A stretch of 64,000 bases of DNA from Mesodorylaimus sp. YZB2_4 (taxonomy: Eukaryota > Nematoda > Enoplea > Dorylaimida > Dorylaimidae): contig JASANH010000770.1 of assembly GCA_030248295.1 (NCBI GenBank), forward strand, positions 62,001 through 126,000, given 5' to 3'. The position numbers and the translations under genes are program-made. The notes under the pieces are model-generated. The model did no database searches. It had not been told where the DNA came from and saw nothing but the letters and a program-made list of their open reading frames with translations. Positions 25,734-42,065 of this stretch are shown piece by piece (position 1 is the stretch's first letter; each line of letters opens with the position of its first letter).

Positions 25734-28700
25734 ATGTCTCTTCATCGAAGCACAATGTGTTCAAGCATGAGGCAATTAGCAGTTTTGGTGGACCTTAGTG
25801 GCACAATTCACATTGGCAACAACGCAACTCCAAACGCGGTCCAAGCTTTGAAACATCTTCGCTCACTGCCTGGTGTTCACTTGAAATTTGTCACAAATAC
25901 CACGAAAGAGAGTGGCCGATATTTGTTTGAGCGACTGAAATCGATTGGATTTGACATTGAAAAAGATGAAATTTTTACTTCGTTAACGGCTGCACGACGA
26001 TTAGTGGAAACCCGTAATTTACGCCCCTTATTACTGCTAGAAGATGTGGCTTTGGAAGATTTTGAAGGCTTAGATTATTCATTACCGGGTACAGTATTGT
26101 TTTATGCATTCTTAGACGCTCGAGCAAAACCAAAGGCTAGGTTGCAGCTGGGATTTGAAAACTTGCGGGCGGTGTGTGCGATCTTCTAACAAGGGAACAT
26201 CGCCAACCTTAAAGTCGAACTTTAAGAAACCAAAAATTTTAACATGTTCCTGGGTGCAAAAGAAAGCAATGTGCAAAATGTAAGAGGCGTCTGGCCAACT
26301 GGTCAGCAGTGGTCAGCGTCTAAAGTCCCGAATTTTTGTGCGTTAACGAAGCTGAGCGTTGAGAAGAACACGCAAAATTCTTTCCAAACTAGATTTTTGG
26401 GTTCGGAGTTTTTAGACAGCAGCTGGTTGGCTTTCCTTTAAGCTTTCAACACCCGGGTTTGGGGTTTTTTTTCTGGAAAAACAAAAAAATCCAGCAGAAT
26501 TTGAAAATTCACTGCACTCTTCGCGCTGACCACTGCTGACCAGTTGTCCAGACGCCTCTGATATTTTGCACAGAGCTTTCTTTTGCACCCAGGAACATGT
26601 CACAATTTTTGGTTTTCCAAAATTCGACTAAACGGTTGGCGATGTTCCCTTGTAAGTTTTACATACAGTAGTTATCCGTGGTTCTAACGAAGGAACATCG
26701 TCAACCATCAAGTCGAACTTTAAAAAAACAAAAATTTTAACATGTTCCTGGGTGCAAAAGAAAGCTCTGTGCAAAATATTAGAGGCGTCTGGACAACTGG
26801 TCAGCAGTGGTCAGCGCCAAGGGTACTGTGAAATTTTTAAATTCTTATGGAGGTTTTTAAAGAAAAACTCCTAACCCACGTGTTGGAAGCTCGGAACCCA
26901 AAAACCGGGTTTGGAGAGAACTCTGAGTGATTTTTTCCAACACTTGGCTTCCTTGCCACACGAAAATTTAGGACTTTAGACGCTGACCACTACTGACCAG
27001 TTGGTCAGACGCCTCCAATATTTTGCAGACAGCTTTCTTTTGTACCCAGGAACATATTACCATTTTTATAATTTCCTAAAGTTCGGCTTAAAGGTTGGCG
27101 ATATTCCCTCGTTAGTGAGGTCGACTATACAAAATTGTAATGAATATACATATATCTATCCACTGTACGTACATGTATATGCAAAATGTACTGGGTATAT
27201 ATAGTAAATACAGTGTATAACGACATAGGTGCATATATGTATACGTACATATCTGCATCTCTCTCTCTATATATATACATACATGTATATGTTGGCGGCA
27301 AAGGCCGAAATCAGGCATTACGTGGAATGCCTGATCACCGCCAGGCATTTCGCGAAATGCCGGCGCGGCCAGGCAAAGGCCGAAATGCTCGCGAAGACTG
27401 GCGATTACGAGAGTTGCCTGAGTGACCAGGCAATACGCGGAATGCTAAAGCCCCGAAGTTGGTATAACCCGTGTTAGAAATAGTGAAATAGTATAGGTAC
27501 TTCTAGTCTGTCTTTGCGCATCCTCGATTCGTAAGCATATAACGTACTGTATTTGTAAAGCATGCACAGGATGATTGAGAAGCCCACGCTTATTTACACG
27601 ACAGCTTGAGCTTATGACAGCGACTGTTACACAACAAATTAGCCGACTTGCATTTACATATACTTTTGCAACCTCCCTTGCACTTGAATTTTCAAAAACT
27701 CTTTGCAGTCTTCCAGTGATCGATGCAGTAGCAACAGTTCCGGCAAAAATATTTCCCTACTAGAAACGTTTTCGGCTACAAAAAGGTTTTCTTCTTAAAT
27801 TTCGAAGTCGCTTTGTACGGGAGAAGAAACCGTCTTTTGGTTCCGAGCTTGTAGAAGCCCATTTTGTGGACTAAATTCGACTTCTGCCTAAACTCGGCAT
27901 TCCGCGTTTTGCCTGGTCACTCAGGCAACTCCCATAATCACCAGCCTCCGCGAGGTCATTTCGGCCTTTGCCTGGCCGCGCCGGCATTTCGCGGAATGCC
28001 TGATTTCGGCCTTTGCCGCCAACATATATACAGCATATATCTGTGTGTGTATATATCAGATTTTGTAGGTATAATTACACCGCTTCACTGTTATATGATA
28101 TGTAGACTTTTTCAGCATATTGTAGCGCGTTCTTAGTCGAATGATTTGCTTTCTGTGAATTGCACATAACATAAGTTTTGTACAGCACCAAAAGGGTAAA
28201 GTGTCGTTACCGCGCCTGGACCAATATCAGCTTCCCATTCCATGTCATTCCTACCTTAGGCTCTGAAGCTGCTCCCAACGCCTCTCCTCCCAATGCTGTC
28301 GTTGTCGGTCTGGCACCATCGCGCTTCAATTACAACGAGATCAACGAGGCGTTTCAATGCGTCTTACACAACAAAGCCGAGCTGATCGCTATTCACAAAG
28401 GTCGGTACTACAAACGCGAAGATGGGGAACTCGTTCTCGGGCCAGGTCCTTTCGTAGAAGCTATCGAATACGCCACTGATCGAAAAGCTGCCGTCGTTGG
28501 GAAACCGGAACCTCACTTTTTCAAGGATGCACTGAAATCCATGAAATTAGGACGAGAAATTGATCTAAAAGATTGCGTAATGATTGGTGACGACGCGCGG
28601 GACGATGTCGGTGGAGCCCAAGCGATTGGAATGAAAGGGATTTTAGTGAAAACTGGAAAGTACAGGCAAGGCGATGAAACGAAGATCAGTCCAGCACCTT

Positions 28701-28765
28701 GGGCCGTAGTTGAGAATTTCGCTGAGGCTGTGGAGAAAATTGAGCAGGACTTGGTCAAGAAGTAG
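25734..28765 (+). CDS. HDHD2: HAD-superfamily phosphatase, HDHD2-like (two exons)
   Basis: Exon 1 is 25734-26088 and exon 2 is 28260-28765. The donor is CCGG|GTACAG and the acceptor CCTTAG|GCTCTG, with one glycine codon split 1/2. The protein is 286 residues, against about 260 in vertebrates. Motif I is [12 protein letters not shown] (residues 17-28): as in other HDHD2 proteins, a serine takes the second aspartate position of the usual Dx[12 protein letters not shown] follows, then [12 protein letters not shown]. Exon 2 has [48 protein letters not shown] and the metal site [14 protein letters not shown]. These give a secure family assignment to a cytosolic HAD phosphatase whose substrate is not established. 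The start could also be one of the in-frame Mets at codons 8 or 12. A possible poly(A) signal ATTAAA is at 28945-28950. The intron (2171 nt) is unusually full of inverted repeats. Confidence 0.93.
26188..26654. mobile_element. fold-back MITE, copy 1 (HDHD2 intron)
   Basis: The ends are perfect inverted repeats: ACAAGGGAACATCGCCAACC on the left and its reverse complement on the right. The inverted similarity runs inward through TTTGCACCCAGGAACATG-type sequence and the CAGCAGTGGTCAGCG block, about 200 bp per arm. It has no coding capacity. Confidence 0.85.
26689..27118. mobile_element. fold-back MITE, copy 2 (HDHD2 intron)
   Basis: The same family as 26188-26654, starting 34 bp after it. The left arm begins AACGAAGGAACATCGTCAACC and the right end is GGTTGGCGATATTCCCTCGTT. 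The arms are diverged from copy 1, so this is an independent insertion or an old duplication. A degraded single arm of the same family is at 52330-52520. Confidence 0.83.
27288..28027. mobile_element. GC-rich fold-back element (HDHD2 intron)
   Basis: The arms 27288-27455 and about 27893-28027 are inverted copies: GTTGGCGGCAAAGGCCGAAA at the left and its complement at the right. The left arm carries an extra unit of about 30 bp (a second GGCATT...GCC block). The arms are GC-rich with NGGCATTNCGCGGAATGCC palindromes, flanked by TATA-rich sequence that may be the target site. The centre (27480-27890) is ordinary AT-rich DNA. Confidence 0.8.
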
Positions 28766-31549: not shown

Positions 31550-31649
31550 TATTTTTAAACTCAAGCAATGACATTCAGGTTGGACGCATATCTTAGGCCC
31601 TGTACCATAACTTGCACCATTAGCGTGCAGGAGCCATAATCATTCATTT

Positions 31650-32014
31650 TGTAACGCCCCTTCTCTGTCAAGCAAGGGCCGCTACGGAAAAAGACCAAAG
31701 AGAACTTCCCTTGAAGTCCGTTTATTCGTCCGCTCTCAGCCAGAGCATCACCCAAAAAACCCCTAAATCACCCAAAAACACTCCTTATATAGGCGCAGCA
31801 CACCACGAGCACTAAAGTACATTCGTACAGTCAGCACTAAACCTGTTCGCACATTCTAGTCGAGTGGTCAATCAACGACCACTCCATATCTAAAGGATAA
31901 ACACCCAAACAAATACACACGAAGATGAGCAGAGAGGCTAAACAATCAACGCCCCTCCGCCCAAACACACATGCCGGCTTATCTTATCTTTCGCTTCCTC
32001 TTACGACCATTACA
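31650..32014 (-). repeat. LTR (3' LTR of the element)
   Basis: 365 bp, TGTAA...TTACA at its ends. In element orientation it contains a TATA motif (CTATATAAGG) and an AATAAA in GAATAAACGG, consistent with U3-R-U5. It differs from the 5' LTR at one position (A for G in a run near 31757). Confidence 0.95.
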
Positions 32015-34199
32015 TTCTCCCGCCCGGCGGTTGTCTCGTCCCCGTGACAGTAGCCGCCGGTCCCTTGTCCTGATCCGCGAACTGAACCTTGCGTGACCGC
32101 AAATTGTAACCTGGCTGCAGGGTGGGCGCTTTTTCGCTCTCTTTATTGGACGGCCTGGCCGCCTGCGTTGACTGCCCTTGCTTGTCCGGCGTCGACGGTG
32201 CGGGCTTCGTACGATTGATGTGCACCCATCGCGCTTCCGTTTGCGATTCCTTTGGGGACCTGACCAACAGGTCCACACCATTCACGTCCTCGACCACTTT
32301 TGGTCCCAGCCAAGGTACTTGGTTCACTTTGTTTATTCCCTTTTCATGCAACGGATTCCTTACCAACACGCTGTCGCCTGGCGTGTATGCATGGTCGATT
32401 ACGCGTTTGTCGTACTGTAGCTTCTGCCGTTCCTGTGCCTTTTCTACATTCTCCTGGGCCAAGGCGTGCATGGCCGTAAGATGCTTGTGAACGTTTCGAC
32501 AGTAATCCTCCTGGTCCACCAAGTAAGGGTTGTCCTGATAGTCGAAGGCAATATCCGATGGAGATCGTGGTGTGCGACCGTAAGTCAGCTCGAAAGGCGA
32601 GAACTTTGTACTGGTTTGCTCCGTAGTGTTGTGCGCATGAACTGCGTATGGTAAGAATTCATCCCAGGACTTTGTGCTGTCTGGTGGGTAGAAACGTAAA
32701 GCCGTTGATAAGCTACGGTGCCAACGTTCTACCAGCCCGTCGGTCTGGGCATGATAAGGAGTCGTAAAAATTTTCTTGGTGTTGCATAATTCGCAAATAC
32801 GTTGCAATAAAGGTGCAGTCAAGTTAGCTCCTCGATCTGATAGCAATCGCACTGGCGGCCCATGGCGGAGGACAATATGGTCCACAAAAACTCGAGCCAC
32901 AGTTGCGGCTGAGACTTCTGGTACAGGTATCGCTTCAACATACTTCGTTGTGTAATCGATAAAACTGATAACATATCGATTGCCGTCAGCCGTAAGTGGG
33001 AGCAGCCCTTTGATATCAACTGCTACCAGGTCCCACGGTTTGGCGGGTGGTGGGATTGTTTGTAAAGGCGCATGCAGGTATGCTGGCGGTGGTTTGTTTT
33101 GCGCACATGGCAGGCAACTGCGAACATGGTGTTCCACGTCTTTGGCCAAGCTGGGCCAATGATAGTACATTCGGATACGGGCCAGGGTGCGATCGATGCC
33201 CGGGTGGGCAGCGAATCGGCTGTCGTGATGCATGTGCAGGATATCTTTTACCAAGCTGGTGGGTACAGCCATGCGAGGTCCAGTCACGCCGTTACGAGGA
33301 TGCCAGTACAGTATTCCATGCGACAAGTCGTAATTTAACACGTCTGTGCAAACTTGTCTACGAGCATTGGCGTCGTTAGGTAGAGCGCCGTGTAGACAAA
33401 AGTCCATGATGGGGCCCAAATACGGATCTTTCTGCTGCAGGCAGCGGATCGTTTCCGAGTCCAGCGACCGCTGAACTGGGGTAACAGCTTCATCCACAAT
33501 GGTGTTTATGTACGCATTATACCACGTATTTTCTGATGTATCCGTGAGCCAAGTCTGGTCCGGTTGATCGAGCGATAATTTTTTCTCTACATTTTCATTT
33601 TCTGGTGTTCCCGACGCGGACAAGTATCCCAAGGCCTCGTTCAGCTTTGAAATGAGTAAAAAGCAGTTTTCCAGCTGTTGGTTCTTCTCTGTGATGACCT
33701 TTTGAATGATTGTGTGCTCCGTGAGCATATCTTCGATGTCACGCATGGTTTTATCAGCCGACGTTGGTATTCCGGATGCGAATGGTTTGCGTGAAAGAGG
33801 GTCCGCATTATTGCGCGCCCCTGGGCGGTACTCAAAAGTTAGATCGTGCTGTTGCATAATGATACCCCATCGGGCAATGCGTGGATTAGGGTTCGTCTTC
33901 TCAAATATGCCCTTCAGGCTTTGGTTGTCAGTAACGACGGTAACCTTTTGCCCATAGATAAAGGTCCGAAAATGAGTAACTGAGGCCACTACAGCTAGTG
34001 CCTCAAGTTCCCATGCGCTGTAATTCTTTTCGTGCTTGCTCAGAGCCCGACTATAATAAGCCACTGGTCGGTCCTTCCCGTCATATTCTTGTGATAGAAC
34101 GGCTCCAAGGCCTTCAAATGACGCATCGGTCTGTAGGATCCATGGTTTAGTAAAGTCAGGGTGGGCAAGGATTGGTGCTTTAATCAAGTGCTCTTTCAT
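32010..34199 (-). CDS. RNase H and integrase part of pol, after an in-frame stop
   Basis: This is the continuation of the large frame after the TAA at 34232-34230; the ten codons between lack a start. RNase H shows ILQTDASFEGLGAVLSQE, a central glutamate in WELEALAV and VVTDNQSL. Integrase has a zinc site (HHDSRFAAHPG...CLPC) and the DDE residues in VAVDIKG, LLSDRGANL and GLVERWHRS. A basic C-terminal tail follows. The integrase is full length, so only the nonsense codon separates it from RT. No chromodomain was recognised. Confidence 0.93.
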   Translation of the reverse strand: MKEHLIKAPILAHPDFTKPWILQTDASFEGLGAVLSQEYDGKDRPVAYYSRALSKHEKNYSAWELEALAVVASVTHFRTFIYGQKVTVVTDNQSLKGIFEKTNPNPRIARWGIIMQQHDLTFEYRPGARNNADPLSRKPFASGIPTSADKTMRDIEDMLTEHTIIQKVITEKNQQLENCFLLISKLNEALGYLSASGTPENENVEKKLSLDQPDQTWLTDTSENTWYNAYINTIVDEAVTPVQRSLDSETIRCLQQKDPYLGPIMDFCLHGALPNDANARRQVCTDVLNYDLSHGILYWHPRNGVTGPRMAVPTSLVKDILHMHHDSRFAAHPGIDRTLARIRMYYHWPSLAKDVEHHVRSCLPCAQNKPPPAYLHAPLQTIPPPAKPWDLVAVDIKGLLPLTADGNRYVISFIDYTTKYVEAIPVPEVSAATVARVFVDHIVLRHGPPVRLLSDRGANLTAPLLQRICELCNTKKIFTTPYHAQTDGLVERWHRSLSTALRFYPPDSTKSWDEFLPYAVHAHNTTEQTSTKFSPFELTYGRTPRSPSDIAFDYQDNPYLVDQEDYCRNVHKHLTAMHALAQENVEKAQERQKLQYDKRVIDHAYTPGDSVLVRNPLHEKGINKVNQVPWLGPKVVEDVNGVDLLVRSPKESQTEARWVHINRTKPAPSTPDKQGQSTQAARPSNKESEKAPTLQPGYNLRSRKVQFADQDKGPAATVTGTRQPPGGRM
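32015..32027 (-). promoter_or_regulatory. polypurine tract
   Basis: In element orientation GGGCGGGAGAA lies directly before the 3' LTR, the expected plus-strand primer site. Confidence 0.75.
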
Positions 34200-34229
34200 C
34201 TTGTCGAAGGCGTTCTGCTGGGCTGAGTC

Positions 34230-37200
34230 TTATATGAATTTGGCCCCCTTCTTTAGTAGAGCGGTCAATGGGTGCGCAAGTTTTGAATACCCTTGCAAAA
34301 ATCGACGGTAATAATTTGTGAGCCCCAGGAAGCTAAGTACCTCATCCCCATTTTTCGGAACGGGACAGTTTTTTACTTTTTCGATTTTAGACGGGCTGGG
34401 TGCGATCCCTTCTTTCGATATTTTGTGACCCAGGTATTCCAGATTTGTTTGCGCGAAATGGCATTTGGATAGTTTGAGTTTGAGGCCGGCATCTTGCAGT
34501 TTGGTCAAAACGAGTTCGAGTCTGTCATTGTGTTCGCTCATGGTACGTCCGAAAATCAAAATATCATCCAGATATGCTAAACAGATTTTCCATTGTAAGC
34601 CTGATAAGACCACGTCCATTAGGCGTTGAAAGGTGAACGGTGCACCTTTCAGCCCGAAAAACATTCTGGTTGGCTGGAAGTGTCCATGGTGAGTTACAAA
34701 CGCTCCTCTTTCCTTGGACTTGTCATCCAAGGGGACTTGCAAGTAACCCCAGGTTTGGTCGAGTGCGGTAAAATACTGAGCCCCGTTTAGCGTTTCGATC
34801 AAATCGTCAATGCGTGGCATAGGATAGGCAGGATGCTTACCCAGCTTGTTGATGCGTCGATAGTCAATGCATAAGCGAAGTGTTCGATCACGTTTTGGGA
34901 CCATCACAATAGGACAGGCCCATTCGCTGTGTGATGGCTCAATGATCCCCGACTCGAGCATCTCATTGACCTGGCGTTCAACTTCCGCCCTGATTGTAGG
35001 TGGGGTACGGTGTGGGGGAGTTCGTATCGGACGGTGCCCGCCGACATCTATGCAATGTTTGATCAAGTCCGTTTTTCCTATATCCATGGCGCTTTTGGAA
35101 AACAAGTGGGGAAACTTCGCCAGCCTGTTCAACAAGTCAGCTCGATCAGCGGGTGTGATGACCTCTGGTAAAGCGAGTTGCTCCAACTCTTTGCGAAAAT
35201 CAATCAAGTCCACCTCCTGTTGGGCCGCGTTGTCTTGAATACTTAGTATTTTGCGTTCCATGTCCGGATCTACGATCGAGATAGAACCCAGTGTGGTTCT
35301 CTGGAACAGTTTGATCGGTGCTGTAGCCGGGTTTAGGATACGTGTGAAGATTTCACCTTTACGAACTGTGGCCACAGCTCTGGTGGCCATGATGCCGTGC
35401 TTCATCAGCAGATCGTCCGATGGTTCAAACATTACTGCGGTACCGTCAGGTATGCTTACTGACAATCGAAAACACGGAGCTTCGTGTTTTGGTGGTAGCG
35501 TAAAATCTTGTGCGGCTCGTGCTATCGAACTCGAGACCGCTGGTTGCGCTAGCATCACGCCACTGATTGGCAGTCTGATATGCGTGTCCAGTCGTAACTC
35601 TGACGCTTCCCAATCGAACATGCAGGACTTGTGACGATATAAGAAATCGGTTCCGATGATCAGCGTGCACGGTAATTCTCGGACTACTAAGGCACCAATT
35701 TCCGTCTTGTAGGATCCAAAGTCGAGGTCGATAACAGTTATGCCCTCGACCGTCAAGCGATTGCCGTCTGCTGCCATTGGCATGGTTTCTGTCTTGTGTA
35801 GTGGGTTAGCTACGCCCGATTTCACCAGCGTAGAGTAGTCACGGAGAGAGATAGCTGTGAATGCTGATCCACTATCCCATAGTGCCTTAGCGTCGGGTAT
35901 CCCATTAATGGCTACTTCACTCCATGGAGTTTCCTTTCGTGGCCCCTTGGTGTTGTGTACGATTTGAAAGGCAGCATTACCCGTCTTATGTTTGTCGACA
36001 GCAACCCAATGTCTGGGTTGATCAATTTCTGAGCGTGCGGTGTTCAGTTGTTTAATCAGAATCTCCCCTATCGACGGATGTCTGGGGTCGCTGGTAGTCC
36101 ACAGCAATTTAGGCGAGGTATCTTGCGGAGTGGTCGATTCATCCAGGCGAGAACTGGGTGGTTGTTCGGTCGCAGGTGTTCCTGCGCAGGTTTCCTGATT
36201 CGTGCGTTTGCACAAGTAACCCCTCTTCCATCGGAGATACACCACAAAAAGGAGTCCCGCGATAATCAGTATCGGTAGTAGGGAGTTAATTATCAGCTGC
36301 AGTGGGCCCTTCAGCAATACGTTCACGCCATCAGCGGCTCCCCTTACGGTACCTGTGAAAAACCGAGCGAGCCCATCACCGGCCCCTCTATAAACATTTC
36401 CGATACCATTGCCTAAGTCGGATAGGCTATCGTACACCGTTTTTGGATCCCACGACATCGCCGCTGTATATTGCATCACCCTATCTAGTCTGGCTTCGAG
36501 ATGCATTGTACGATAAGTGTAGTGCTGCAGCATCTGCAGGGATGTCTCCACATTGGTCAATTCATGTTTGAACAGCGCTGGTTGGTCAAACGAGAACGGC
36601 TTTAGGTTATTTTGGGCTTGGACCGAGTATGGTAGCGATAACACGAACACAGTGCCGTTTGCACTGACCCAGGTACTGTTTGTTTTATGCATCCCAGCAA
36701 TATGATGGTGGCATGGAACTGGCAAGGCCTCCGCGGTTAGGTCTTTACTCCCAGGTACTACAAACATGATTTCTCCGTCGACCTCAACTGGCAGCTCGGT
36801 GTAACACGTGTTCGCAACCTTGTAGTCCCAAAAGAAAGTAGAAATATTAGCTGGCCTACACTGCCAGATCATCAGGGCCTCTCCCGCAAAACGGGCATGT
36901 ATATCACTCCGTTGTAATAAGGCGCGGGCCCCAAGAGTGGGGTCCAGCCGTAACAGCTGCCAGATAACCATGAGATGGCTTTGGGCTAAGTGGCACAGTT
37001 GAAGCCACACGTTACGGAACAGCGACTGACTCATTTGCAGCAGTGTCAGTTCAAGATACTGCAACTTTCCATTGACGGGATCATTTTGATACACAGAACC
37101 GTCTATGTCTGATGCATGTAATTTGTGCGTAAGTGTTCTGCTCTGCTCATCGTAAGTTGGGAGGGATCCCTGATCGTGCGGTAGCCTCAGGAAGATACCT

Positions 37201-39758
37201 TGCTTCGTTTGGTGCAAATTTATTCCGCATATATGTAATTCGCTCGTCAAGGTCAAAGCGCTTTGCAAAGCGTCAATTACAACAAATTGATCCCGTATTG
37301 TGGCATTGTAAACACCCTTACGCGTCAACCAACAGTCAAGAGCAATCTTGTCATCGTCCCAAATTACAATCGATTCACGCGACGTGCAGTGATTTTCTCC
37401 GAGGCATTCAGATACGTCTCCAAGGTCTGATATCCGCGTGGTTTGGTCAGGTGCCGCCACTGAGCCGAGCTCTAAGAGGAAATTGGACGTGGTGTAAACA
37501 TGAGTGTAGCAGCACCACTTAAAAGGCGGGTCAACGGTATTATTGCTAGACCAGACCCCTTCCTGTATCTGCACTAGGGGGTGGTCGTGGTAAGTATGGT
37601 TTGCCCACGCTGTTCGGCAATCTGCCTCAGGGACAGGTATGTGTATGGTTTCGTCAAATAGGACACTTTTGGAGCCCAGAAAGCCCACGTAAGTATGGAC
37701 AGTTCGGGTATGCAATGAGCATCGTGCCGCCTCTGTACGGACAGGATCTGACTTCAGAGTCCATACTTCAAGTATGACCTCGTGTGATGGGGTGGTAAAA
37801 TTGTCTGGGATCACGCACATTGTGGAAGTGGGTATGTCCACCGCAAACCCTCTCCTGCCTTCTCCACAGATATAGTATGTCTCGGTCATGGTAGGGCACA
37901 CCCAGAGGCCCATGAGTATCAACAGAAGCCAATACCGCATATTATAGGTCAAAGTGAGTACATACCATTGGTCCGTTTTGCTCCGCCTCGAGCGGTTTCG
38001 GTCTTTCTCCGAGTCTCGAGCATCTGTCCCTGCCTCTGCCTCGATTACCAGCGTGCCGTCCAAGTGTGACTTGTCATTCTCTTCGAAGTCCCCGTATTTC
38101 ATTGCGTACTCCTCCACAATCTTTTCGCAGATCGTACTGGTGCTTGGGTGAATGCCCAGGTTGGCTTGCGCGATATCGCACAAAAGTCTGTACACTTCGC
38201 CGATTTTTGTGTCTGGTGCCTTGCTCAAGCGAATAAGCAGTTGATTCAAGTCTGGCTTTCGGTCCTGTTTGACTACGTGGTCCTCGTCGACCATGGTGAG
38301 AATCATCTCTTCCCAGTTGTCCATCGGGGGTTTGGTTGGTGAGGTGGCTGCGTCCCGTTTTGACATGACCACCTTGATTGGAGACGTGGCTGTACTGGTC
38401 ATTCCCTGGTGGCTCGCCACGTAATGTCCGAATGCTTGGTCGTACTTCCTTTTTGCTACGACGATCCGCTTCGGACTAAGTTCTGGGTCGTTTTCGATTT
38501 CGTTGTCAGCCAAGTTGTCCATCATCATGTATGATGGAGAACGGTTGTCGCGCGTCGTTTTCCTTCTCGGGCAGTCCCGTGCGATATGCTCGATACTCCC
38601 ACAGTCGAAGCATGCCTTTGGTGCTTTCGGTATGAATGGTGCAGCACGCGCATTCAGGCCGATCTCCTTATCAGCTTTCGGCCCCATCGAACGGCAAATA
38701 TCGGCCGTATGTCCTCGCTTTTTGCACAGTTGACACGTGTCCAAGTTTTTAGGCATTGCGGCCAGTGCGCCTGAACTCTCACGGCGTTTCCGTCCGCAAT
38801 CCATGTCGTAGTGGTTGTTGTACACGAATCCGCGATCTCGACAATGCGTGCATATCGGTCCAGTGAGGGTACAGTCGCTTGAGCGTCCCGCTGGGCGACT
38901 GCGACTCCGATTGCGCTGGTGATCTAGATCTCGTTGCATGTTTCGTGCCCTGTCGCTTACCTGCAACAGTTCAGTAAATGTAGTAAGGAAATTCGTCATA
39001 TCTGGTTCCTTTGCTACATGGGTCGTCTTATCCGCGAACGCGCCTGCTTGGGCCAAGACCCCGTTGGGTGCCCACAACTCCATCTGCATCGCGCGTCTGA
39101 CAAAATCGTCCAAACTCGGATTAGGTAATTCAGAGCTGGCTACGTGCTGTCTCAGTGTGGGTGACGCCAGTCCTCTTAGGAACTGAGATTTGGTGAACCT
39201 CTCTCGTTCTGCATTCGTAGCATTGTGGAAAGCTTGCCGCGCTAGGTCCTTCAAAGCGGTAGCGAAAGTATCGGGGCTTTCCTCAGGTTTTTGCACTCGA
39301 TTGAAGAATGCTAGCTCGCGTAAGGCAGCGTTCCTTTCTTCTGGAAAGCGTGCCTTCATCGCGTTTTCATAGTAAGCCCAGTCAGTGGCTTGAGCTGGAG
39401 TAGCCGTGGCTCGCAGCTCATCGAATGCGGCTCGCGCTGAGCCAGTCAACAACATCCGTAGATTCTCGATTTTTCCAACCGCGCTCAGTTGAGTTCTGTT
39501 CGAGAAGTGCTCGAATTCGCGTAACCACTCAGTCAGGCTCTCCGTCACTGATCCTGAGTAAGTTTGCGGAACACGCGCCAAAGCTAGCAATTGGGCCATC
39601 GGGTTTACTGGCTCCATGTTTGCTGGTGGTGCAGCTGGTTGCTGCAATGCAAGAGCAGCTAAGGTTTCTTGGGCCGCCTGTCTGGCCACGTTCATCAGTG
39701 CCTGGTCAATCACTGCTGCTTGTGGGCCCGGTGGGTCCCCATTCCCAGGGTTCACCAT
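34230..39758 (-). CDS. gag-env-pro-RT polyprotein
   Basis: The first good ATG is at 39758 (MVNPGNGDPPGPQ); the frame is open back to 39893 without an ATG. Gag: a capsid-like domain with SGSVTESLTEWLREFEHFSN, then two CCHC knuckles at 38735-38694 (CQLCKKRGHTADIC) and 38612-38571 (CFDCGSIEHIARDC). The env-like region starts at 37940. The protease has DSGSAFTAI with DSG at 35876-35868. RT shows PHRTPPTIRAEVERQVNEML, CIDYRRINKLG and the catalytic YLDD at 34574-34563. The frame ends at a TAA (34232-34230) at the RT/RNase H border, where related elements read on, so this copy probably makes a truncated product unless the stop is read through. Confidence 0.93.
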   Translation of the reverse strand: MVNPGNGDPPGPQAAVIDQALMNVARQAAQETLAALALQQPAAPPANMEPVNPMAQLLALARVPQTYSGSVTESLTEWLREFEHFSNRTQLSAVGKIENLRMLLTGSARAAFDELRATATPAQATDWAYYENAMKARFPEERNAALRELAFFNRVQKPEESPDTFATALKDLARQAFHNATNAERERFTKSQFLRGLASPTLRQHVASSELPNPSLDDFVRRAMQMELWAPNGVLAQAGAFADKTTHVAKEPDMTNFLTTFTELLQVSDRARNMQRDLDHQRNRSRSRPAGRSSDCTLTGPICTHCRDRGFVYNNHYDMDCGRKRRESSGALAAMPKNLDTCQLCKKRGHTADICRSMGPKADKEIGLNARAAPFIPKAPKACFDCGSIEHIARDCPRRKTTRDNRSPSYMMMDNLADNEIENDPELSPKRIVVAKRKYDQAFGHYVASHQGMTSTATSPIKVVMSKRDAATSPTKPPMDNWEEMILTMVDEDHVVKQDRKPDLNQLLIRLSKAPDTKIGEVYRLLCDIAQANLGIHPSTSTICEKIVEEYAMKYGDFEENDKSHLDGTLVIEAEAGTDARDSEKDRNRSRRSKTDQWYVLTLTYNMRYWLLLILMGLWVCPTMTETYYICGEGRRGFAVDIPTSTMCVIPDNFTTPSHEVILEVWTLKSDPVRTEAARCSLHTRTVHTYVGFLGSKSVLFDETIHIPVPEADCRTAWANHTYHDHPLVQIQEGVWSSNNTVDPPFKWCCYTHVYTTSNFLLELGSVAAPDQTTRISDLGDVSECLGENHCTSRESIVIWDDDKIALDCWLTRKGVYNATIRDQFVVIDALQSALTLTSELHICGINLHQTKQGIFLRLPHDQGSLPTYDEQSRTLTHKLHASDIDGSVYQNDPVNGKLQYLELTLLQMSQSLFRNVWLQLCHLAQSHLMVIWQLLRLDPTLGARALLQRSDIHARFAGEALMIWQCRPANISTFFWDYKVANTCYTELPVEVDGEIMFVVPGSKDLTAEALPVPCHHHIAGMHKTNSTWVSANGTVFVLSLPYSVQAQNNLKPFSFDQPALFKHELTNVETSLQMLQHYTYRTMHLEARLDRVMQYTAAMSWDPKTVYDSLSDLGNGIGNVYRGAGDGLARFFTGTVRGAADGVNVLLKGPLQLIINSLLPILIIAGLLFVVYLRWKRGYLCKRTNQETCAGTPATEQPPSSRLDESTTPQDTSPKLLWTTSDPRHPSIGEILIKQLNTARSEIDQPRHWVAVDKHKTGNAAFQIVHNTKGPRKETPWSEVAINGIPDAKALWDSGSAFTAISLRDYSTLVKSGVANPLHKTETMPMAADGNRLTVEGITVIDLDFGSYKTEIGALVVRELPCTLIIGTDFLYRHKSCMFDWEASELRLDTHIRLPISGVMLAQPAVSSSIARAAQDFTLPPKHEAPCFRLSVSIPDGTAVMFEPSDDLLMKHGIMATRAVATVRKGEIFTRILNPATAPIKLFQRTTLGSISIVDPDMERKILSIQDNAAQQEVDLIDFRKELEQLALPEVITPADRADLLNRLAKFPHLFSKSAMDIGKTDLIKHCIDVGGHRPIRTPPHRTPPTIRAEVERQVNEMLESGIIEPSHSEWACPIVMVPKRDRTLRLCIDYRRINKLGKHPAYPMPRIDDLIETLNGAQYFTALDQTWGYLQVPLDDKSKERGAFVTHHGHFQPTRMFFGLKGAPFTFQRLMDVVLSGLQWKICLAYLDDILIFGRTMSEHNDRLELVLTKLQDAGLKLKLSKCHFAQTNLEYLGHKISKEGIAPSPSKIEKVKNCPVPKNGDEVLSFLGLTNYYRRFLQGYSKLAHPLTALLKKGAKFI
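36150..37940 (-). CDS. env-like glycoprotein region inside the polyprotein
   Basis: An internal Met at 37940 starts a signal-peptide-like stretch (MRYWLLLILMGLWVCPTMTE). About 600 residues follow with many cysteines and N-glycosylation sequons (NFT, NHT, NNT, NAT, NIS, NST, NGT). One membrane span lies at about 36294-36238 (NSLLPILIIAGLLFVVYL), then a basic cytoplasmic stretch. A Gly/Ala-rich amphipathic segment precedes the span. A motif of the form CYTELPV...PC lies near 36810-36720. The overall layout resembles class III fusion proteins such as those of chuviruses and herpesvirus gB, but this is only an impression. The exact 3' border with protease is not defined. Confidence 0.75.
37960..37965 (-). 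promoter_or_regulatory. possible 5' splice site before env
   Basis: CCAATG|GTATGT on the element's coding strand matches a donor well and lies 20 bases before the env-like ATG. If used with an acceptor near the protease start, it would remove env and fuse gag to pro-pol. A usable acceptor was not identified with confidence. Confidence 0.3.
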
Positions 39759-39893
39759 CCGCAATATGATTTTCCTATTCCTGGTTATCCGAATATCACT
39801 AGTACTGAGCAAAGCCTCTGCTTGTGCTCTTCGCTCAATATCGTTAAATAGTTCCGTTTCGGTTGCCGTTTTCCGGGTAAGTTTGGAAGACAC

Positions 39894-40116
39894 CTAATCC
39901 TAGTGTTTGTCAGTTAGGTACAGTAAATAGCCGTAATCCAGCAAAATCAGACGATACTGCAGTCAGCTTTCTTGTAGCTAATCGGTTACTAGAAAGGGCG
40001 ATACCTTTCACTAGTATTGTCGCTCTGACCAACCAGGCCGATACCTGCAGTTGATGTCCAGAGTCGTGTCCAATAAAACTATCAACCCGACCAGAAGTGC
40101 AAGGGGTATCTCGCAC
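39894..40116 (-). other. untranslated leader of the LTR element
   Basis: About 220 bp between the primer site and the gag open frame. It would hold packaging signals if the element is mobile. No ORF of note. Confidence 0.6.
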
Positions 40117-40135
40117 TCCTGCCAGGCTCGCCAAA
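40117..40135 (-). promoter_or_regulatory. primer-binding site
   Basis: Right after the 5' LTR the element strand reads TGGCGAGCCTGGCAGGAG. It starts with TGG, as needed to pair with a tRNA CCA end. The implied tRNA 3' end ...GGCTCGCCA looks like a tRNA-Arg, which is unverified. Confidence 0.65.
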
Positions 40136-40500
40136 TGTAACGCCCCTTCTCTGTCAAGCAAGGGCCGCTACGGAAAAAGACCAAAGAGAACTTCCCTTGA
40201 AGTCCGTTTATTCGTCCGCTCTCAGCCAGAGCATCACCCAAAAAGCCCCTAAATCACCCAAAAACACTCCTTATATAGGCGCAGCACACCACGAGCACTA
40301 AAGTACATTCGTACAGTCAGCACTAAACCTGTTCGCACATTCTAGTCGAGTGGTCAATCAACGACCACTCCATATCTAAAGGATAAACACCCAAACAAAT
40401 ACACACGAAGATGAGCAGAGAGGCTAAACAATCAACGCCCCTCCGCCCAAACACACATGCCGGCTTATCTTATCTTTCGCTTCCTCTTACGACCATTACA
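40136..40500 (-). repeat. LTR (5' LTR of the element)
   Basis: 365 bp, same length and sequence as 31650-32014 except for one base. The TGTAA/TTACA ends are inverted. Confidence 0.95.
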
Positions 40501-42065
40501 AAAAACAGGTGACTGATGCCTGCAGGCTTCATTACCAGATATGACGCACAATGCTGCATTAAGAAAGCAAACTATGGCAAAATTGAAAACATCCTGCAGA
40601 GTAATCCAAGCCAGCTGTGCATATGTAAGTGCTCTCTGCAATTTATCTTGACCACACGCGTTGCCCAATGAGAAAACTGCAAAGATCACGCATGCTTGCT
40701 TGTGGATGGCCAAGACTGGTAGCGTGCTGATGTGCGTAAGCGACAGATAAAATGAAAGGCTACGCCTGATGTGTGGCAACAAACATGCTGCGTCTTTTCC
40801 CTGGATATACCCATCGGCTATGTCAATCTTTCATATATAAACGTTTTCGTGTAACTATTTTGGGGCACAAGGGGGCAGTTCTCTGCGTGCTGCCGGTTAG
40901 ATTTTCTACTGTGTATTCTTCTTTGCTGCTTGAAAGTACTGAATATCGCTTTGGCAAGCTCTGATTTCCCGCCAGCTTGTTCAGTGAAACTTCCCAAACC
41001 CTCTCCTTCCCCCAAAAGTGTCTTGCTTCTTGGTCAATTGCCACAGCTCTCATGGCATGAACCTAATATTTGCGTAAGTACATTTTGCATAATCCGCAGT
41101 TTTTCAACGATTTTAAACCCCTTCTTTGAAAAATGAGCCTGTTTTTTAAGAAACAGCTTTAAACTTTTTATTTATACTGTATAGCAAAACGATCAGCGAC
41201 AGTGCAATATGTACTGTACACAGCTCTTTTTCATTGTTCTTGCCCCTCCCAGTCGTCCCAGGGAGGGTCGATTTTCGTAGGCTAGAGGGTTGCTAGTTGA
41301 CAATATCTTGCTATCGACTAGTGTTAATGTGGGATGCATTCCGGTCAACAGCGCGTGTTAGTCGCTACTTTGCGGCGTGCAAGGCGCAGAGTTGAACTCT
41401 GGGCCGACCGATTTGCAGCTCTGCCAAGCAAACTGTGACAGACACCTTTAATCGCTACATAGCACATAGTGATTCTTGATACTCTGCATTGTCATGCAGC
41501 CTAGTATGCTATTTGGGTGTCATCAGATCGTGAGCAGTGATGCTGCCATCTTTAACAATGTTGATAGGCCGAAAAATTCAAATTTGGCGCCATTTTAGAA
41601 TATGTGGCATGCTATTTTGCAATAAAAAGCACAATTTTTAGTCCAAATTATTGATGAAAAGAACAGGATAAAATCAGTTATCTGAAATCAGATAGCATTC
41701 CTGCCAATACTTTGTACGACAGGGCTAAACAGAAATTTCATTAGCTAATAATTTTCAAAAGTTTTAGCTTTGTTTTAATTGCCATTTAAATTGAAGTACA
41801 ACTTTTCCCGCAAAAATGAAAATGAACCAAATTGACGCATTTGCTCTGAAGATGCATATCATGGGTATCGATTTGCATAATTTGAAAAACAACACCGGCA
41901 TACATGTTCTTCGTACAATACCATCCTCCTTCTTTACGCCCCGTCAGTTTCTAATAATGACGAAAATGTGTTGGCGGCAAGACCTGCACAGCTAGCTAAT
42001 TGAACGTGGGCGATAGGTGACTCCGAGATATTGTGTGGAGACCTCTGGTGGGCAGTGACGGCCAT
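40501..42065. other. no gene seen
   Basis: AT-rich DNA right of the LTR element. A short tRNA-like fragment is at about 41385-41410 (GGCGCAGAGTTGAACTCTGG). No coding exon or inverted repeat was recognised. Confidence 0.4.

What the first reader, a model, noticed from the sequence alone, without database searches (positions are those of the whole stretch)
31650..40500. Ty3-type element with an env-like gene between gag and protease
Seen: one open frame runs capsid, two CCHC knuckles, a signal peptide, a sequon- and Cys-rich ectodomain, one membrane span, then DSG protease and YLDD reverse transcriptase. Known: retroviruses, errantiviruses and env-bearing LTR elements normally carry env after pol. 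Inference: a lineage captured a viral glycoprotein gene at the gag/pro border and keeps it in frame. The two LTRs are almost identical, so this form was mobile recently.
Basis: partly seen in the sequence, partly recalled or inferred. Interest (0 to 1): 0.87.

Follow-up and report, generated by a model that had tools for sequence, protein, structure and literature searches.

The report
Retroelements with env before pol
A nematode genome carries several families of retrovirus-like elements in which a glycoprotein gene related to those of negative-strand RNA viruses sits, in the same reading frame, between the capsid gene and the protease-polymerase gene, an order I did not find in the papers I could search.

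Summary
Confirmed and widened. Window 31650-40500 (minus strand) is an LTR element (LTRs 1 mismatch in 365, tRNA-Arg primer site) with gag, env, protease and RT in one frame; an in-frame stop at 34230 separates RT from RNase H/integrase. The middle piece is a viral glycoprotein: Pfam Monjiviricetes_fusion (4e-23), with class III (gB) fold matches from low-confidence models. It is no lone chimaera: the nematode host genome shows 77 env pieces, 28 with an RT match within 4 kb downstream and none downstream of the 74 RT matches. Eight diverged families have env before protease-RT (gag seen upstream in five), and two unnamed public contigs carry gag-env and env-protease-RT fusions. Env is mostly under purifying selection (dN/dS about 0.19-0.36 for most pairs at moderate divergence; some broken or very close copies 0.4-1.0). 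Two families share env 51-59% alike on RT 31-32% alike, so the env cassette has been exchanged. I propose a flavivirus-like polyprotein: an internal signal peptide frees Gag, the ectodomain enters the ER, Pro-Pol stays cytosolic. That step is inferred. Ten paper searches showed no such gene order; a 2023 survey found no clear capture of such glycoproteins by Gypsy elements.

The parts
40136..40500 (-). 5' LTR of the element (TG...CA on the element strand)
   Evidence: the repeat finder; 365 bp, 1 mismatch to the other LTR; LTR search lists 41 places in the genome, 11 of them (the window's two included) at 98-100% over the full 365 bp
40116..40133 (-). primer binding site, 18 nt complementary to the 3' end (with CCA) of tRNA-Arg(ACG)
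   Evidence: 6 genomic places, reversed-pattern control 0; 2 of the 6 places fetched; ARAGORN tRNA-Arg acg in both
37941..39893 (-). gag: capsid (about 39168-39455), CCHC knuckle (38568-38615), linker up to the signal peptide
   Evidence: Pfam PF03732 1.6e-5, PF00098 1.1e-4
36102..37940 (-). env: signal peptide (about 37881-37940), class III-like ectodomain, membrane span (36222-36308), cytosolic tail; in frame with gag and pol, no stop of its own; ends chosen by eye
   Evidence: Pfam PF24664 Monjiviricetes_fusion 4.3e-23; hydropathy; fold
35637..35918 (-). aspartic protease domain (DSG)
   Evidence: PF13975 0.0014 (below curated cut-off)
34419..34901 (-). reverse transcriptase
   Evidence: PF00078 1.3e-29
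34230..34232 (-). in-frame stop between RT and RNase H in this copy
33849..34226 (-). RNase H
   Evidence: PF17919 4.3e-35, PF17917 2.2e-34
32751..33266 (-). integrase: zinc-binding (33090-33266) and core (32751-33041)
   Evidence: PF17921 2e-21, PF00665 4.6e-8
32015..32025 (-). polypurine tract candidate directly before the 3' LTR
   Evidence: read from the sequence
31650..32014 (-). 3' LTR

Best explanation
It is a member of a lineage of envelope-bearing Ty3-type LTR elements of nematodes whose env gene, related to the class III fusion glycoproteins of negative-strand RNA viruses (class Monjiviricetes, chuvirus/mononegavirus-like), is fixed between gag and protease in the one polyprotein frame. 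Shown: the order, the single frame in several families, its presence in eight families and in two other contigs, mostly purifying selection on env, and exchange of the env cassette between families. Inferred: capture from such a virus, and a polyprotein made flavivirus-style. Gag is translated in the cytosol, the internal signal peptide takes the chain into the ER membrane, signal peptidase frees Gag, the ectodomain is glycosylated in the lumen, and after the membrane span protease-RT-RNase H-integrase emerges on the cytosolic side and is later cut free. Env then serves particle entry into other cells, as in retroviruses.
Against: No RNA or protein data. An equal supply of Gag, Env and Pol is unusual for this type of virus, and Env without a stop would stay joined to Pol until cut. 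The splice scan was a simple consensus match, and the absence of donors is hardly below chance. The structure models are poor (mean pLDDT 51.8 and 57.0), with whole-chain TM-scores of 0.2-0.3 and rmsd about 30 or more for the longest alignments. In the careful RT tree family 3 falls in an unresolved fork with env-less elements, so a single origin of the order is not shown. No signal peptide was found in family 4, where a LINE-like sequence adjoins env. Some env pairs have high dN/dS: 0.62-0.65 with the broken C12:1936 copy, 0.69 for C717 v C269, 0.99 for window v C935. The window copy has a stop in pol, and most copies fetched are broken.
Confidence: 0.62

Rival explanations
1. Env is in effect an in-frame retained intron: splicing removes it to give an ordinary Gag-Pol, and the unspliced or differently spliced RNA gives Env.
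For: Would give separate control of Env and Pol. The frame is kept on both sides, as in-frame removal would require. Two weak acceptor-like sites were seen upstream of env, one each in families 3 and 6, where chance gives 0.3 and 0.5.
Against: No donor of 8 of 9 or better in the eight border stretches scanned (five upstream, three downstream, from four families), though chance would give only 1.3. The one deleted copy examined (C70:89778) lost env imprecisely and out of frame, keeping residues 510-572, not at a clean splice junction.
Confidence: 0.2
2. Env no longer serves entry: it is kept as a membrane anchor or sorting part of Gag-Pol for purely intracellular mobility.
For: Lies inside the polyprotein, so Pol is tethered to the membrane by default. 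LTR elements can do without entry (recalled).
Against: The ectodomain keeps its cysteines and a core motif (invariant columns between residues 171 and 384 in 11 sequences) and is mostly under purifying selection; an anchor would not need it. Env has been exchanged as a unit.
Confidence: 0.12
3. A unique chimaera, a nested insertion or an assembly error.
For: The window copy has no visible target-site duplication and a stop in pol; several copies end at contig ends.
Against: Three near-identical env copies in three contigs, one with two LTRs and a 4-bp duplication; eight diverged families; two fusions in other public contigs.
Confidence: 0.02
4. An ordinary env-bearing element of the errantivirus or Anakin kind.
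For: Anakin also captured a chuvirus glycoprotein (PMC7642597, passages read).
Against: Env is before pol in the cases seen here and after pol in none of 77. Anakin is BEL/Pao; here the pol pieces match Ty3-type Pfam models and no BEL-type model was listed (that the models are Ty3-type is recalled).
Confidence: 0.04

Closest known systems
Anakin (BEL/Pao elements of mosquitoes with a chuvirus glycoprotein; PMC7642597, passages read)
   Same: LTR element that captured a chuvirus-type glycoprotein; solo glycoprotein genes also in the genome
   Different: BEL/Pao, not Ty3-type. The paper says that env-like proteins of three other BEL/Pao elements lie downstream of the polyprotein; Anakin's own map is in a figure I could not see.
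Errantivirus / gypsy (recalled)
   Same: Ty3-type LTR element with an env
   Different: env after pol with its own stop, of baculovirus type
TelKA elements of bdelloid rotifers (PMC5408684, passages read)
   Same: retrovirus-like LTR element with a fusion protein of negative-strand RNA virus origin
   Different: paramyxovirus F type, class I; presented as an ORF3, the type the paper places downstream of pol
Flavivirus polyprotein (recalled)
   Same: capsid, then internal signal peptide, glycoprotein, membrane span, then cytosolic protease and polymerase in one chain
   Different: unrelated virus group; works-like comparison only
Monjiviricetes glycoproteins (chuviruses, nyaviruses, rhabdo-like viruses)
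   Same: Pfam family and predicted fold
   Different: there a separate gene of a negative-strand RNA virus (recalled)

Membership tests
Ty3/gypsy (Metaviridae) LTR element | pol order protease-RT-RNase H-integrase | tested here: met
   protease match below its curated cut-off
Ty3/gypsy (Metaviridae) LTR element | LTRs with TG...CA ends, tRNA primer site | tested here: met
Ty3/gypsy (Metaviridae) LTR element | 4-6 bp target-site duplication | tested here: met
   4 bp GAAC at the C90 copy; not seen at the window copy; no other copy was looked at
Ty3/gypsy (Metaviridae) LTR element | RT groups with named Ty3 references in a tree | not tested
   trees hold only elements of this genome
Env-bearing LTR element of the errantivirus/retrovirus plan | env downstream of pol | tested here: not met
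   0 of 77 env pieces downstream of any of the 74 listed RT matches within 10 kb
BEL/Pao (Anakin) | BEL-type pol | tested here: not met
   no BEL-type Pfam model among those listed for the pol pieces
Monjiviricetes class III fusion glycoprotein | match to the family profile over its curated cut-off | tested here: met
   PF24664 81.6 bits against 27
Monjiviricetes class III fusion glycoprotein | class III fold | tested here: met
Monjiviricetes class III fusion glycoprotein | membrane fusion activity | not testable with these tools
   needs experiment
Monjiviricetes class III fusion glycoprotein | place in a tree with named chuviruses and mononegaviruses | not tested
   no named virus sequences were aligned

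The most novel reading that the evidence does not exclude
A nematode lineage of retroelements has turned the retroviral gene order round (gag-env-pro-pol) and uses one flavivirus-like polyprotein, in which signal peptidase, not a stop, a splice or a frameshift, separates Gag from the rest and Pol is made as the cytosolic tail of the envelope protein, with the env slot serving as an exchange site for glycoprotein cassettes.
Probability: 0.4. Interest if true: 0.88.

Novelty: new variant of a known kind. Interest (0 to 1): 0.78.

Why it matters
Retroviruses and env-bearing LTR elements are described with env after pol, which separates the membrane protein from the cytosolic Gag-Pol, in retroviruses by splicing (recalled). 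A lineage that keeps env inside the polyprotein, with families only 31-55% alike in RT, shows another solution and makes a direct question testable: how are Gag, Env and Pol separated and dosed when they share one frame? It would also extend capture of chuvirus-type glycoproteins from BEL/Pao to Ty3-type elements, and it shows exchange of the env cassette between lineages.

Tried and rejected
Rejected: artefact or one-off chimaera; env after pol in this genome (within the 77 and 74 listed matches); C70:89778 as an env-less ancestor, since a remnant of env lies between its gag and protease.

Led nowhere: scans of viral contigs (3) and genome contigs (2) found no relatives, so the contigs of P0003 and P0010 could not be read and their hosts are not known. 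PDB search by sequence gave only two weak matches to unrelated proteins. A clean single-capture history: env and RT identities of seven families correlate poorly (r = 0.20 over 21 pairs), which I lay to the env exchange. Family 4's gag side (L045) holds a LINE-like reverse transcriptase, so it says nothing on gag (by eye).

Results against my reading: very close env pairs have dN/dS from 0.29 to 0.99 (window v C935 0.99), and the broken C12:1936 copy 0.62-0.65 with most others; the careful RT tree does not place family 3 with the other env-bearing families, although the quick one does (0.894); the models are of low confidence; donors are absent where chance gives only 1.3. One RT match that one search counts as without env (C657:28327) has an env piece upstream that one search did not list (L020). 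The quick RT tree left out L027 (89 columns only), and the dN/dS counts used only pairs with at least 60 shared codons and skipped stop codons.

Full report
WHAT IS THERE. The element occupies 31650-40500 on the minus strand. Its LTRs (31650-32014 and 40136-40500) are 365 bp with one mismatch. Two bases after the 5' LTR lies an 18-nt primer site matching the 3' end of tRNA-Arg(ACG); the tRNA-like sequence occurs at 6 places in the genome, and ARAGORN calls tRNA-Arg in the 2 of 6 that I fetched. A purine-rich stretch precedes the 3' LTR. One frame of 1887 codons holds gag, a glycoprotein, protease and RT; after an in-frame stop at 34230 the same frame continues through RNase H and integrase. 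Of three partial copies at contig starts, C134 and C296 lie in open frames of 931 and 930 aa and C933 has a stop, so the stop is not general.

HOST. The genome (145 Mb, 1067 contigs) has 133 matches to the cuticle collagen domain PF01484, none in the 14 control genomes, a COX1 stretch that reads by the invertebrate mitochondrial code, and two of six env relatives found with the profile are from the mermithid nematode Romanomermis culicivorax. That PF01484 is nematode-specific is recalled. I take the host to be a nematode.

NOT A CHIMAERA. By DNA, the env stretch has 23 matches in the genome, three of them full length and 99-100% alike in three contigs. The C90 copy has LTRs at 155522 and 164005 and a 4-bp duplication GAAC. 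By protein there are 77 env pieces, down to 28-30% identity (72 of 312 candidates scored), and 74 RT matches (71 of 749 candidates scored), so numbers are lower bounds. 24 of the 74 RT matches have env within 4 kb upstream on the same strand; seen from env, 28 of 77 pieces have RT within 4 kb downstream; no env piece lies downstream of a listed RT match within 10 kb. Of the 22 best RT matches, 17 have env upstream, one (C70:89778) keeps a remnant of env between gag and protease, three start at a contig end inside RT, and one (C411) has env only 6 kb upstream. Of the 50 RT matches that one search lists without env, 43 are 32-43% alike; C657:28327 among them does have an env piece upstream, in three (C53, C48, C92) I read the upstream side and found gag followed by protease without env, and the rest were not read there.

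HOW MANY FAMILIES, HOW OLD. The quick RT tree has 19 env-bearing rows (C70:89778 counted for its remnant) and 9 rows without an env match; the env-bearing rows lie on one side of a split with support 0.894. I count eight families: the window's; C356/C101/C85/C324/C44; C96/C12/C40/C312; C476/C480; C70/C234; C113/C838/C595; C436; C511. Env before protease-RT was seen in all eight; gag upstream of env was seen in five (window, C356, C96, C70, C595). In a careful tree of 14 rows, seven of the eight families form a clade (100/98), while the C96 family sits in an unresolved fork with three env-less rows. Single origin of the gene order is therefore open. The continuous frame gag-env-protease-RT is stop-free in the window and in C96 (1861 aa), env-to-integrase in C12 (1939 aa), and kept with two stops in C356; many other copies are broken by stops or frame changes.

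OTHER ORGANISMS. Of 5.77 billion proteins, few are relatives (3, 6 and 1 in three searches, with overlap), but two matter: P0003 is gag with a CCHC knuckle, a signal peptide and env in one 927 aa frame, and P0010 is env, protease and RT in one 1130 aa frame. Neither contig is named. The orders gag-env and env-protease-RT thus exist in other records; neither of the two shows the whole.

SELECTION. Pairwise Nei-Gojobori counts: env C356 v C324, 578 codons, 59 synonymous and 42 nonsynonymous differences, dN/dS 0.19; C356 v C109 0.22; C312 v C96 0.32; window v C269 0.335, v C717 0.32, v C664 0.36. Gag in the C356 family gives 0.25 and protease-RT 0.15. Against this: pairs with the broken C12:1936 copy 0.62-0.65 (0.39-0.46 with three others), C717 v C269 0.69, and very close pairs from 0.29 to 0.99. 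I read the high values as drift after insertion and decay; no formal test was made. Env is held like gag and less tightly than pol.

ENV CASSETTE EXCHANGE. The C113/C838 copies have env 51-59% identical to the env of C96 and C312 though RT is only 31-32% identical; the other pairs of families have env at 31-51% and RT at 32-55%. AU tests: RT data reject a clade of the C96, C113 and C436 families (p 0.0001), and env data reject the RT grouping (p 1.8e-25), while env puts those families together with 100/98 support; the groups were named after the identities were seen. The C595 copy of that family has gag 39.7% like the window's and 24% like C96's; higher similarity to C96 runs from the signal peptide (residue 625; 38%, then 52-55%) to just past the membrane span (1229). 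So the exchanged unit looks like the env cassette.

HOW IT MAY WORK. A hydrophobic stretch stands at the signal-peptide place in 3 of 4 families read there and at the membrane-span place in 6 of 6, and in the open frames env has no stop of its own. This gives the topology of a flavivirus polyprotein (recalled): Gag cytosolic, ectodomain lumenal, protease-polymerase cytosolic. Signal peptidase would free Gag, the element's protease would free Pol. Simple scans for splice donors near the env borders in four families found none at 8 of 9, where chance gives 1.3; this hardly lowers the odds of splicing. All of this paragraph beyond the counts is inference from anatomy.

WHAT IS IN PRINT. Ten searches of open-access papers listed no paper whose title or abstract start reports an element with env between gag and pol. 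Passages read: PMC7642597 (Anakin, BEL/Pao with chuvirus glycoprotein); PMC10084718, which states no clear evidence of capture by Gypsy or Copia elements and reports glycoprotein remnants in Nematoda and near Gypsy fragments; PMC5408684 (rotifer elements with a paramyxovirus F); PMC12440569 (outline and passages). The rest were seen as listings only. Subscription papers and Repbase were not searched, so prior description is possible.

VERDICT. Observation and interpretation hold. The finding is a new variant of a known kind: an env-bearing LTR element, but with env inside the polyprotein, in a diverse lineage.

Noticed in passing
L046 2819-4585 (C70), L051 2721-4700 (C392), L050 3666-5339 (C450): Env-like open frames of 588, 659 and 558 aa with no gag or pol match in the few kb fetched around them; the first two have a signal peptide and a membrane span. 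They group together in the env tree, apart from the element envs; possible host genes of viral origin.
   Followed up: partly
L053 (C53:220900-224800), reverse strand: An env-less lineage has two hydrophobic stretches with a basic segment between its CCHC knuckle and its protease, as if a small membrane piece occupied the same slot (by eye).
   Followed up: no
C935 copy (L003/L010): The protease after env is only 54% like the window's although gag and env are 96-99% alike: a mosaic copy.
   Followed up: no
L045 (C476:26500-34000): A LINE-like reverse transcriptase lies in the frame directly upstream of env where gag would be (by eye).
   Followed up: no
window 31640-31649 and 40501-40510: No target-site duplication at the window copy, unlike the C90 copy.
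   Followed up: partly
window 25734-28765 (+): Two stretches of a haloacid dehalogenase-type hydrolase gene (PF13344, PF13242), a likely host gene.
   Followed up: no
C73, C273, C741 and other contigs: 15 matches to mitochondrial COX1, some in contigs far larger than a mitochondrial genome and several degraded: likely nuclear copies of mitochondrial DNA.
   Followed up: no
P0002: A gene labelled as from a Gammaproteobacteria MAG is of this env family: probable animal DNA in a bacterial bin.
   Followed up: no
genome C92, C271, C78, C123, C435: Other LTR elements with very long single frames of 2842-3108 aa; C92's upstream part is a long gag-like stretch without env.
   Followed up: partly
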